NCBI GenBank assembly: GCA_043817485.1
Contig: JBDRGX010000041.1
Location: forward strand, 1-7,732
Length of the DNA stretch: 7,732 nucleotides
Source: JBDRGX01 sp043817485 [NCBI: bacterium]
GTDB lineage: Bacteria; JBDRGX01
Reading direction: 5' to 3'
In this document: positions 24 to 4,987 of the stretch, piece by piece
Position numbering within the stretch: position 1 is the stretch's first letter
Layout of the letters: each line of letters starts with the position of its first letter
Made by a program: the position numbers and the translations under genes
The notes under the pieces: model-generated
What the model was told of the DNA's origin: nothing
The model's database searches: none
Seen by the model: only the letters and a program-made list of their open reading frames with translations

Positions 24-140
24 AGACTGTGTCATAACTCTAAATCTAGACATCCATACCACAACATATTGTGGTTTTGTGGAAACCTACCACTTTATGT
101 TGTAAAACAATTGCCGTGAAATTGAATTATGACACAGTCT
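24..140. mobile_element. MITE-like inverted-repeat element, no coding capacity
   Basis: A perfect 14-bp inverted repeat bounds this 117-bp segment: AGACTGTGTCATAA at 24-37 and its exact reverse complement at 127-140. Allowing one mismatch extends it inward to 17 bp (24-40 with 124-140). Inside are a second perfect 8-bp inverted repeat (ACAACATA 61-68 with TATGTTGT 96-103) and a competing hairpin (ACCACAA 58-64, loop CATA, TTGTGGT 69-75). GC is about 35%, above the roughly 25% of the adjacent gene. Ends of the GACTGTGTCA type resemble terminal repeats of several DDE-transposase insertion sequences, and a short element with such ends and no ORF fits a MITE or the collapsed remnant of an IS. I see no clear target-site duplication, so an extended regulatory stem-loop remains possible. 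Confidence 0.5.
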
Positions 141-276: not shown

Positions 277-2307
<2,031 letters not shown>

Positions 2308-2469: not shown

Positions 2470-2667
2470 TTATTTAGCAAATGAATAGCTTCCATCTGCA
2501 TTTTTTATTAAATGAGCATTTAGTCTTTTTACAGCTTCATTCATTCCTTCCTGATAATATTTCTGCTTTTCCTCAAAGGTCTTATTTCTAATATCCCTAT
2601 ATACTTCATTCTTCCATTTCCATACTTCAAGTAATGCCACTGGCATATTTTTTTCAGATGATTTCAT
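2470..2667 (-). CDS. Small antitoxin-like partner of PIN toxin
   Basis: This 65-residue charged protein is most likely the antitoxin for the PIN-domain protein directly upstream. Its start overlaps the toxin stop by 4 bp (ATGA), so the two are translationally coupled. The segment ALLEVWKWKNEVYRDIRN (about residues 11-28), followed by the FEEKQKYYQEG helix and the ending NADGSYSFAK, recalls the short 'LKEVWEWKE-VYED' proteins that I know accompany PIN-domain toxins of the SWNFKHL type. This is recall of a family pattern, not a search result. There is no membrane segment or signal peptide and no obvious DNA-binding fold. The start is well fixed by a near-ideal GGAGGTGAT (minus-strand reading of 2674-2682) 6 nt before the ATG. 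It ends 162 bp from the convergent bioDA gene. Confidence 0.75.
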   Translation of the reverse strand: MKSSEKNMPVALLEVWKWKNEVYRDIRNKTFEEKQKYYQEGMNEAVKRLNAHLIKNADGSYSFAK

Positions 2668-3143
2668 TTATATATCACCTCCATTGGGTTGGTTAAAATT
2701 AGTGGATAAAAGTATCCCCTTTTCTCATTGATTATTTTAATGCTGAATTGTTTTTGAATGTTGGCTAAATGCTTAAAATTCCATGACAAAAGAATATCCA
2801 TCTGATAGCAGGTTGAGATAGCAACATGTTGAGCATCTTCTATTTTCTTATGAGGAATAACCTTTTCCTTGAGATAAATATTAGCAAGATCATCTGATTC
2901 CTTATCCAATCTCAAAATTCTTAAATGATACTTTTCAATTACTTCTAAAAGCTTTTTCTTTTTTAATTCATCCTTTGTTTTTCCAATTTCTCTGATTAAA
3001 ACATCGGAAATATAAACAAGGTATTTCTCTTTTTCAACATAGTCCTCAAAAAACTCCTTGGTAATCTTCTTGAATTCTGGAGCATCATCAGCAAAGAGAA
3101 AATTTATTACAGAAGTATCAAGGTATATTTTAAGTTTTTTCAT
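2664..3143 (-). CDS. PIN-domain protein, probable VapC-like toxin nuclease
   Basis: This 159-residue protein is a PIN-domain Mg-dependent ribonuclease candidate, typically the toxin of a type II toxin-antitoxin pair. The N-terminal YLDTSVINFLF puts the first catalytic Asp at 9. Glu52 lies in DVLIREI, Asp103 in EDAQHVAIS, and the fourth acidic site is followed by LLSWNFKHL (about 118-126), a signature I associate with one common PIN subgroup whose members also end in 'iN...GY...i.TP.EVi', as here (INEKRGY, LTNPMEVIY). All expected acidic residues are present, so it looks active. Spot counts give roughly 28-33% GC, slightly above the core genes, consistent with acquisition. The toxin precedes its antitoxin, the reverse of most type II pairs. 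I see no good SD before its ATG, whereas the antitoxin has a strong one. RNA target unknown. Confidence 0.87.
   Translation of the reverse strand: MKKLKIYLDTSVINFLFADDAPEFKKITKEFFEDYVEKEKYLVYISDVLIREIGKTKDELKKKKLLEVIEKYHLRILRLDKESDDLANIYLKEKVIPHKKIEDAQHVAISTCYQMDILLSWNFKHLANIQKQFSIKIINEKRGYFYPLILTNPMEVIYK
2674..2682 (-). promoter_or_regulatory. Strong Shine-Dalgarno of the antitoxin, inside the toxin 3' end
   Basis: On the minus strand this reads GGAGGTGAT, a 9-base match to the 16S anti-SD core, 6 nt before the antitoxin ATG (2667-2665). It lies within the last codons of the PIN gene. With the 4-bp ATGA overlap, it should give much stronger translation of the antitoxin than of the toxin from one mRNA. 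Confidence 0.8.
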
Positions 3144-3442: not shown

Positions 3443-3796
3443 TTATTTTTCTGCTTTTGCCATATTTACTATTTCTGTAAATGTTTTTGGATTATTTATT
3501 GCTAAATCTGATAATACTTTTCTATCAAGCAATATATTTAAGTCTTTTAATCTTTTTATAAATCTACTATAAAGTATTTCTTCTTTTCTACAAGCAATAC
3601 TTAATCTACTTATCCAAAGAGCTCTAAAAGTTCGTTTATTTGTTTTTCTATCTCGTGTTTGATAAGATAAAGCTTTTAATAAAGATTCTTTCGCTCTTCT
3701 ATATCGAGTTTTTCTATTTCCACGGAATCCTTTTGCTAATTTTAGAACTTTTTTTTTCCGTTTTCTTGAAGCAACACTAGTGTTTACTTTGGACAT
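3443..3796 (-). CDS. rplT: 50S ribosomal protein L20
   Basis: L20 binds 23S rRNA early in large-subunit assembly and in well-studied bacteria represses its own operon. The 117-residue length is normal. Family hallmarks are present: a basic N-terminus (SVASRKRKKKVLKLAKGFRG), the helix with YRRAKESLLKAL, the RDRKTNKRTFRALWISR segment, then YSRFIKRLK and LDRKVLSDLAINNPKTF. The start is supported by GGAG five bases before the ATG. It is the last gene of the infC-(zinc ribbon)-rpmI-rplT unit, 54 bp after rpmI. It is AT-rich, like the core genes. Confidence 0.97.
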   Translation of the reverse strand: MSKVNTSVASRKRKKKVLKLAKGFRGNRKTRYRRAKESLLKALSYQTRDRKTNKRTFRALWISRLSIACRKEEILYSRFIKRLKDLNILLDRKVLSDLAINNPKTFTEIVNMAKAEK

Positions 3797-3850: not shown

Positions 3851-4051
3851 TTAAAGATAAGGAATTAATATTTTAATTCTTTTTGTTTCTGCTGCACTAA
3901 CTAATCCAGATTTTCTTAAATTTCTTTTTTGTTGAGCACTTTTTGAAGAAAGTTTATGTCTTGAAAAAGCTTTTTTTCTTTTGATTTTACCTTTACCAGT
4001 AACTTTAAATCTTTTAGCTGCTCCTTTTTTAGTTTTCAATTTATAACCCAA
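3851..4051 (-). CDS. rpmI: 50S ribosomal protein L35, TTG start
   Basis: This 66-residue basic protein is L35 of the large ribosomal subunit: [26 protein letters not shown] at the N-terminal half and [22 protein letters not shown] at the end are typical. The family normally begins M-P-K-(M/L)-K-T; here it begins M-G-Y-K-L-K-T from a TTG codon (4051-4049). No ATG or GTG is available in frame between the preceding stop (4072-4070) and that point, and AGGAG lies 9 nt upstream. That SD is inside the last codons of the zinc-ribbon gene, whose stop is separated from this TTG by a single base. GC is about 25%. The altered N-terminus coincides with the upstream direct repeat, which suggests that the junction was rebuilt. 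Confidence 0.95.
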
Positions 4052-4068
4052 GTTATAGTTCTCCTTTC
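4047..4068 (-). repeat. rpmI-side copy of 22-bp direct repeat (functional SD and TTG start)
   Basis: On the minus strand this reads GAAAGGAGAA-C-TATAA-C-TTGGG. It matches 20 of 22 bases of the segment at 4420-4441, on the infC side of the zinc-ribbon gene and 373 bp away. In this copy the SD and TTG start are used by rpmI, and the same bases encode the KKGEL end and stop of the zinc-ribbon protein. Confidence 0.75.
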
Positions 4069-4328
4069 TTTACAATTGATATGTCTGTACCACAGTTTTT
4101 GCATTTCTTTGCACCTAAAACCACTTCTCCCCCACAATCTGGACACTTTTTCATTTTCATATTTGGACCGATCGCAATAATCAGCCATCCAATTGCCCCA
4201 AGCAAAAATCCAAATACTATGCCGGCTCCAGTTCGACCTTTTGACTTCCCAATAGTTGCTCCAATAAGTGATCCTATTATTACATAAAGTAAAATAATGA
4301 GAAGCGTATTATCCAATATATTATCCAT
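4053..4328 (-). CDS. Small two-TM membrane protein with C-terminal zinc ribbon
   Basis: This 91-residue protein has two predicted hydrophobic segments (about 9-27 and 36-54) joined by a basic Gly-rich loop (GKSKGRTG). A likely cytosolic zinc ribbon follows: C62-P-D-C65-G-G and C76-K-N-C79-G. This resembles a widespread family of small 'TM plus zinc-ribbon' proteins of unknown function; the Cys pairs suggest metal binding, and I assign no activity. It sits between infC and rpmI, an unusual place, at about 36% GC against about 25% for rpmI. It has its own good SD (AAGGAG, 8 nt before the ATG) and a possible promoter just upstream. Its last codons (KKGEL, TAA) are part of the direct repeat carrying the rpmI SD, so the natural C-terminus may have been altered on insertion. 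Probably horizontally acquired. Confidence 0.85.
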
Positions 4329-4395
4329 TCGAATTCTCCTTGATTAATTTTTGCATAACATCAAAAATAATTTTTCAAAAATTACAATAAAATTA

Positions 4396-4424
4396 ATTAT
4401 AATACATTTTAAAATCTAGCCCAA
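4396..4424 (-). promoter_or_regulatory. Possible promoter before the zinc-ribbon gene
   Basis: On the minus strand a perfect TATAAT (4401-4396) lies 17 bp after TTGGGC (4424-4419), a poor -35 matching 3 of 6 bases. It is about 70 bp before the zinc-ribbon ATG and would also serve rpmI and rplT. The -35 falls inside the inactive copy of the direct repeat. Perfect -10 matches are common in DNA this AT-rich. Confidence 0.25.
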
Positions 4425-4441
4425 ATTATAATTCTCCTTTC
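4420..4441 (-). repeat. infC-side copy of 22-bp direct repeat (dead rpmI-like start)
   Basis: This begins 6 nt after the infC stop and reads, on the minus strand, GAAAGGAGAATTATAATTTGGG, shown here split as GAAAGGAGAA plus TTATAATTTGGG. It differs from the rpmI-side copy at 2 of 22 bases. It has the same SD and TTG-GG, but the next codon is TAG, so it cannot start a protein. It looks like the former infC-rpmI junction, or a duplicate made when the zinc-ribbon segment entered. Confidence 0.7.
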
Positions 4442-4447
4442 ATATTA

Positions 4448-4987
4448 TTAAATTTTTTTCTTTTTTGATATTGGAGCAAAAAATATTATTATACTTTTAC
4501 CTTCCATTTTAGGAGGCTTTGCTATTTCTGATATATCTTTTAAATCTTCTATTAAACGATTTGTTAAATTATTTCCATATTCTACATGAACAATTTCTCT
4601 TCCTCTAAATGTAATAACTACTTTTATTCTATGACCTTTTCCTAAAAAATTTTTGATATGATTCATTTTAAATAAATAATCATGTTCATCTATTAATGGT
4701 CTCATTTGAATTTCTTTTACAAGAATTACTTGTTGTTTTTTCTTTGCTTCACTTTCTTTTTTTTCTAAATCATATTTATATTTTCCATATTCCATAATTT
4801 TACAAACTGGAGGATTGGCTGTTGGTGCAGTTTCTATTAAATCAAGATGTCTTTCTCTTGCCATTCTTAATGCTTCATAAGTTCGCATAATTCCAAGTGG
4901 ATTATTGTTTTCATCAACTACCCGCACTTCTGGAATTCTAATTCTTTCATTTACTCTAATTGGTTTTATAATGTTATGAACCTCCAT
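4448..4987 (-). CDS. infC: Translation initiation factor IF3
   Basis: IF3 binds the 30S subunit, prevents early joining with 50S and checks start-codon and initiator-tRNA pairing. The 179 residues (from ATG) give the normal two-domain layout. The N-domain covers about 8-75, with VNERIRIPEVRVVD, LGIMRTYEAL and NPPVCKIMEYGKYKY. A Lys-rich helical linker follows (75-86). The C-domain has VKEIQMRP, the DYLFKMNHIKNFLGKGHRIKV helix-strand and TFRGREIVH (126-134). The ATG at 4987 lacks a well-spaced SD, whereas GGAGG overlapping it is 8 nt before an in-frame ATT at 4972-4970, so the true start may be that ATT (174 residues), as in IF3 genes that sense their own level. It heads the rpmI-rplT operon, and a TTGACA promoter and a leader hairpin lie upstream. 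Confidence 0.96.
   Translation of the reverse strand: MEVHNIIKPIRVNERIRIPEVRVVDENNNPLGIMRTYEALRMARERHLDLIETAPTANPPVCKIMEYGKYKYDLEKKESEAKKKQQVILVKEIQMRPLIDEHDYLFKMNHIKNFLGKGHRIKVVITFRGREIVHVEYGNNLTNRLIEDLKDISEIAKPPKMEGKSIIIFFAPISKKKKI
4981..4985 (-). promoter_or_regulatory. Shine-Dalgarno that points to an ATT start for infC
   Basis: On the minus strand GGAGG occupies 4985-4981. Its first G is the last base of the apparent ATG start codon. It is followed by 8 nt and then an in-frame ATT (4972-4970). The only other AGGAGG in the leader is 19 nt before the ATG, too far for normal use. Rare AUU starts are well known for infC in enterobacteria. Confidence 0.6.

What the first reader, a model, noticed from the sequence alone, without database searches (positions are those of the whole stretch)
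4047..4441. Zinc-ribbon gene inserted inside the infC-rpmI-rplT operon, bracketed by 22-bp copies of a ribosomal start region
The infC-rpmI junction is normally tight. Here a 373-bp unit separates them: a two-TM zinc-ribbon gene of about 36% GC beside rpmI at about 25%. The unit is bounded by 4420-4441 and 4047-4068, which match at 20 of 22 bases and both carry GAAAGGAGAA, TATAA and TTGGG. The infC-side copy dies at TTG-GGC-TAG; the rpmI-side copy drives rpmI. This could be insertion with target duplication, recombination between SD regions, or a cassette that carries its own start for the gene it displaces. The last would be a neat way to enter an essential operon without killing the host.
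Basis: partly seen in the sequence, partly recalled or inferred. Interest (0 to 1): 0.7.

Follow-up and report, generated by a model that had tools for sequence, protein, structure and literature searches.

The report
Gene wedged before ribosomal gene rpmI
A small foreign-looking zinc-ribbon membrane gene sits between two normally adjacent essential translation genes, with a spare copy of the downstream gene's start signal left at the old position, which looks like a trace of how the gene got in, although no close relative was available to prove it.

Summary
On the minus strand, infC (4448-4987) and rpmI (3851-4051, TTG start) are separated by 396 nt holding a 91-codon gene: a two-TM hairpin plus a zinc ribbon. 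Two 22-bp copies of one start region (4420-4441, 4047-4068; 20/22) bracket it. The match exceeds shared Shine-Dalgarno signals: rpmI-versus-rplT start regions in 68 loci reach at most 16/22, and 12 other genomes with long infC-rpmI gaps reach 9-13/22. The dead infC-side copy puts its TTG 23 nt after the infC stop, ordinary spacing (median 26.5 nt in 54 loci), so it is best read as the old rpmI start. The live copy supplies the inserted gene's last codons and stop; rpmI begins 1 nt later. The gene's GC3 (26%) exceeds the 1397 host windows tested (maximum 14%).

Best reading: a horizontally acquired gene entered the rpmI start region with duplication of that region, and the inner copy now drives rpmI. 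The enzymology is unresolved: no recombinase gene in the window, no terminal inverted repeat, and no IF3 relative above about 54% identity, so no empty site was seen. SXT at prfC and islands at dusA are mechanistic precedents.

The parts
4448..4987 (-). infC (translation initiation factor IF-3), host gene upstream of the insertion
   Evidence: NCBIfam TIGR00168 E 1.1e-62; GC3 9.4%
4420..4441 (-). infC-side copy of the 22-bp start region; dead start TTG-GGC-TAG; its TTG is 23 nt after the infC stop, probable vestige of the original rpmI start
   Evidence: 20/22 match to 4047-4068; spacing; normal spacing in 54 loci
4329..4419 (-). A+T-rich leader between dead copy and inserted gene, ending in the gene's own SD (AAGGAG); no RNA structure beyond chance
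   Evidence: 4329-4447 is 18.5% G+C; SD read directly; RNA fold z = +1.2
4053..4328 (-). inserted gene ZR, 91 aa: two-TM hairpin around a SKGR loop, then CPDCG-x10-CKNCG zinc ribbon; last codons KKGEL-stop lie in the rpmI-side repeat
   Evidence: ORF; PHROG 8436 E 4.6e-8 over residues 12-86; Pfam zinc-ribbon models below cut-off; family alignment; GC3 26%
4047..4068 (-). rpmI-side copy of the 22-bp start region: SD AAAGGAG, ZR stop TAA, and the TTG start of rpmI
   Evidence: 20/22 match; reading frames
3851..4051 (-). rpmI (ribosomal protein L35), TTG start 1 nt after the ZR stop codon
   Evidence: TIGR00001 E 1.5e-25; spacing
3443..3796 (-). rplT (ribosomal protein L20), host gene
   Evidence: TIGR01032 E 1.3e-41; GC3 8.5%

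Best explanation
A horizontally acquired gene for a small membrane zinc-ribbon protein was inserted at the start of rpmI in the infC-rpmI-rplT operon, in an event that duplicated about 22 bp (SD, spacer and the first codons TTG GGY). The outer copy stayed at the old rpmI start behind infC and decayed into a dead start (TTG GGC TAG). The inner copy keeps the SD and start of rpmI and also supplies the stop codon and last codons of the inserted gene, so rpmI is now probably translationally coupled to the newcomer (1 nt between stop and start). Shown: the repeat, its excess over SD similarity, the spacing, the composition. Inferred: that the gene entered here, the duplication during entry, the coupling. 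The enzyme or repair route is not identified; staggered-break or illegitimate recombination with fill-in is my favourite for lack of any recombinase signature.
For: 20/22 match against at most 16/22 in 68 real start-region pairs and 9-13/22 in 12 other long infC-rpmI gaps. Outer copy TTG 23 nt behind infC stop, against a median infC-rpmI distance of 26.5 nt with 43 of 54 under 120 nt. Homology does not extend into the flanks by local alignment (p 0.82 on the 3' side, 0.37 on the 5' side). Both differences within the 22 bp are T in the outer copy and C in the inner, the direction expected if the unconstrained outer copy decays in an A+T-biased genome (inference, n = 2). ZR GC3 26% against at most 14% in 1397 overlapping host windows. 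The gene is absent from the 60 junctions fetched.
Against: No relative with an empty site was found: best IF3 identity 54%. A 22-bp duplication is long for ordinary transposases (recalled). Whole-window scanning finds a comparable pair in 6 of 300 shuffles. The first base after GGG differs the other way (outer C, inner T). The leader 4329-4419 is A+T-rich like host spacers, not like the ZR gene, so the unit is not compositionally uniform. The first 20 ZR codons have GC3 20%, nearer to host than the rest.
Confidence: 0.55

Rival explanations
1. [quoted passage not shown]
For: Same anatomy: direct repeat at the 5' end of a conserved translation gene with a replaced start. Passages in PMC8409611 and PMC2791158 describe this for dusA and prfC.
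Against: No integrase in the window; the unit is 351 bp with one gene; the 22-mer pattern has 0 matches in viral contigs; the PHROG family hit is of unknown function.
Confidence: 0.15
2. ZR is an older neighbour of rpmI and the infC-side copy is a later local event, for example the relic of a second ZR-like gene that was deleted by recombination between repeats. The outer copy also reads ATG AAA GGA GAA TTA TAA (MKGEL-stop), the same peptide end as ZR (KKGEL-stop), with a synonymous Leu codon difference.
For: Shared KGEL-stop reading and the synonymous difference.
Against: No further similarity on the 5' side of the outer copy to the ZR 3' end (p 0.37). Other members of the family mostly end a few residues after the second CxxC without KGEL. 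One synonymous difference is weak.
Confidence: 0.15
3. Coincidence plus SD convergence in an A+T-rich genome.
For: AAGGAG is a strong constraint, and the ZR start and the outer copy reach 16/22; 6 of 300 shuffled windows hold some pair this good.
Against: No real pair of start regions tested exceeds 16/22; TATAA and TTGGG outside the SD match in register; the outer copy stands where rpmI should start.
Confidence: 0.1
4. The outer copy is a kept regulatory mimic of the rpmI start, for instance a decoy for translational control by L20 or L35.
For: It keeps an intact SD and TTG start two codons long.
Against: No Rfam match at gathering threshold; the leader folds no better than shuffles (z = +1.2); no conservation can be tested without relatives.
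Confidence: 0.05

Closest known systems
SXT/R391 integrative conjugative elements at the 5' end of prfC
   Same: Insertion at the start of a conserved translation gene; the incoming DNA supplies a new start (passages seen in PMC2791158, and PMC8409611).
   Different: Those are large elements with a tyrosine integrase; here a 351-bp unit with one gene and no recombinase.
IMEVchUSA3 and related islands at the 5' end of dusA
   Different: Island with its own integrase and RDF; a shared att core was demonstrated by experiment there, not here.
PHROG 8436-type small membrane zinc-ribbon proteins
   Same: Two-TM hairpin with SKGR-like loop followed by CxxC-x10-CxxC ribbon.
   Different: The full-length relatives examined (21 loci: 20, L040) are not beside infC, rpmI or rplT; identity to ZR 25-44% over the matched stretches.
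Extra gene in the infC-rpmI gap of a few Desulfobacterota (L046, L047, L091)
   Same: A single small gene of about 400 bp in the same junction.
   Different: Unrelated exported-looking proteins; no duplicated start region (9-13/22).
Casposon insertion with 14-15 bp target duplication
   Same: A long target duplication at a gene end (PMC6977970 passages).
   Different: Terminal inverted repeats and a Cas1-type casposase there; neither seen here.

Membership tests
PHROG 8436-type two-TM zinc-ribbon proteins | Profile match spanning hairpin and ribbon | tested here: met
   E 4.6e-8, residues 12-86, profile 3-90 of 110
PHROG 8436-type two-TM zinc-ribbon proteins | Two CxxC pairs about 13 residues apart after the hairpin | tested here: met
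   CPDC and CKNC aligned with 14 homologues
Tyrosine-recombinase integrative element at a gene 5' end | Flanking direct repeats (attL/attR) with replaced start | tested here: met
   22-bp repeats, 20/22, inner copy holds the rpmI start
Tyrosine-recombinase integrative element at a gene 5' end | Integrase gene in the element | tested here: not met
   One ORF in the unit on the coding strand, zinc ribbon only
Tyrosine-recombinase integrative element at a gene 5' end | Empty attB in relatives | tested here: inconclusive
   No relative above about 54% IF3 identity found
Insertion sequence or MITE | Terminal inverted repeats inside short target duplications | tested here: not met
   Best end-to-end inverted match 9 of 12 nt, offset by 6 nt

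The most novel reading that the evidence does not exclude
The 373-bp unit (gene plus one 22-bp start module) is a minimal gene cassette that enters operons at Shine-Dalgarno/start sites and rebuilds the start of the gene it displaces, so that essential operons survive the entry; copies would then sit before other genes of this lineage.
Probability: 0.08. Interest if true: 0.8.

Novelty: new variant of a known kind. Interest (0 to 1): 0.38.

Why it matters
How foreign genes get into tightly spaced essential operons without killing the host is rarely caught in sequence. Here the old start site seems to be preserved as a fossil beside the new one, so one sequenced relative could show the empty site and settle the route. 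If the same module recurs in the genome, it would be a very small operon-entering cassette.

Tried and rejected
Close relatives: IF3 against GTDB contigs gave 14 loci, best 51%; IF3 in samples of Desulfobacterota (145 of 148; 96 of 99, a largely overlapping set; 9 of 395 at E<=1e-56), of the phylum of G006 (97 of 98), and of two classes (6 of 6; 21 of 46 at E<=1e-57). No hit exceeded 54%. A quick three-gene tree leaves the window on a long branch without printed support, so I do not name the lineage.

ZR relatives: own-sequence search 0 of 395 at E<=1e-8 (no positive control, so weak), 1 of 249 at 1e-5. Plasmids and phages: none at 1e-5; at E<=1 only partial matches, none covering 80% of the query, in 6 and 28 records. 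Viral contigs: 3 loci, 20-24 residues of ribbon only. PHROG 8436 matches 186 of 395 genomes at 1e-5, but many listed matches cover only the ribbon half, so the family count is an overestimate.

Decayed rpmI in the leader 4329-4419: not seen in the direct flank test (p 0.82) or against all of rpmI (0.69 and 0.24). In the same call, 2 of 8 comparisons were nominally low (rplT plus strand 0.007, infC minus strand 0.003); I read these as A+T-rich low-complexity matches but did not explain them. Riboswitch or leader: no Rfam match, no fold. Promoters: 9 found, 11.4 expected. Other long gaps as repeat-bracketed insertions: not so. Viral DNA with the 22-mer: none. L20 in viral contigs: none. PADLOC: nothing beyond E 0.016. 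PIN in PDB: none at E<=1. Literature: infC-rpmI-rplT plus insertion, 7 papers, seen as a listing only; operon-insertion phrases, none; illegitimate recombination and Shine-Dalgarno, 5, listing only.

Full report
What is there. The minus strand reads gcvPA-gcvPB-infC-ZR-rpmI-rplT, then a PIN-domain pair; a BioD-BioA fusion lies on the plus strand. The ZR gene (4053-4328) encodes 91 aa, with a two-helix hydrophobic hairpin around SKGR and a CPDC/CKNC zinc ribbon. Pfam zinc-ribbon models match below their cut-offs; PHROG 8436, a family of unknown function, matches residues 12-86 at E 4.6e-8.

The repeat. 4420-4441 and 4047-4068 match at 20 of 22 bases on the minus strand; the similarity fades to 28 of 35 when extended and is absent in the flanks. 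Shuffled windows hold a comparable pair in 6 of 300 cases, so a scan alone is not decisive. Real start regions are the better control: rpmI against rplT in 68 loci gives a mean of 12.4 and a maximum of 16 of 22, and 12 other genomes with infC-rpmI gaps of at least 110 nt give 9-13 of 22 between the region behind infC and the rpmI start. In the window the next best pair of start regions is 16 of 22.

The junction. In 54 of 60 fetched Desulfobacterota loci with an rpmI hit, the distance from infC stop to rpmI start has a median of 26.5 nt, and 43 are under 120 nt. The loci are the top IF3 hits less one (40), plus 20 taken, so they are not a random sample. Eleven are 120 nt or longer; in three of the six genomes of one class a small gene for an exported-looking cysteine-containing protein fills about 400 nt (L046, L047, L091). 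None of the 60 encodes ZR there (best tblastn row E 0.93).

Which copy is old. The TTG of the infC-side copy lies 23 nt behind the infC stop, within the ordinary spacing, and it carries the same unusual TTG GGY codons as rpmI, where the relatives mostly show ATG CCN. That is what an abandoned rpmI start would look like. Within the 22 bp both differences are T in this copy and C in the live one, as expected of decay in an A+T-rich genome; the next differing base goes the other way.

How it would work now. The ZR stop TAA lies inside the live copy and 1 nt before the rpmI TTG. Ribosomes ending ZR would be on top of the rpmI start, so coupling is likely; this is inferred. ZR has its own AAGGAG. 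No promoter excess, no RNA family and no fold suggest separate regulation.

Is ZR foreign? Its GC3 is 26%; 1397 overlapping host windows average 8% with a maximum of 14%. The PIN pair downstream is similar (23-29%). The first 20 codons of ZR are lower (20%). Relatives of ZR are scattered: PHROG 8436 matches occur in 186 of 395 genomes, many in the ribbon only. Of 21 loci examined none lies beside infC, rpmI or rplT, and tblastn of ZR found 13 of them at E<=1e-3 with 25-44% identity over the matched stretches. A donor is not identified.

Mechanism. The anatomy equals that of elements that enter the 5' end of a gene and rebuild its start: SXT at prfC and IMEVchUSA3 at dusA (passages). But there is no integrase and the unit is 351 bp. 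Ordinary transposition is disfavoured by the lack of terminal inverted repeats (best 9 of 12) and by the length of the duplication. I therefore favour a repair-type capture event with fill-in of staggered ends, with site-specific recombination as a rival; a further rival, that the outer copy is the relic of a second ZR-like gene, rests on the shared KGEL-stop reading.

Limits. No whole genome is held for the window, relatives are distant (IF3 at most 54%), and metagenome collections were not open. The empty site, the key test, was not seen.

Noticed in passing
window 24-140: A 117-bp element with perfect 14-bp terminal inverted repeats (AGACTGTGTCATAA / TTATGACACAGTCT), folding far better than shuffles as DNA (z = -5.1): MITE-like, upstream of the BioD-BioA fusion.
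   Followed up: partly
window 2470-3143: PIN-domain protein with a 65-aa partner gene upstream-overlapping downstream end, GC3 23-29%, just behind rplT (VapC-like; 5 plasmid records at 27-32% identity). A second foreign-looking unit in the same neighbourhood; no bracketing repeat stood out.
   Followed up: partly
L046, L047, L091 (infC-rpmI gap): In 3 of 6 genomes of one class a gene of about 100-125 codons for an exported-looking cysteine-containing protein fills the infC-rpmI gap. The junction may be a repeated entry point.
   Followed up: partly
window 283-2307: Fused BioD-BioA (674 aa); near full-length fused relatives in 2 of 16 genomes searched (G142, G080; 52-53%).
   Followed up: no
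window 4049-4051: rpmI starts with TTG GGT TAT; the relatives listed mostly start ATG CCN.
   Followed up: no
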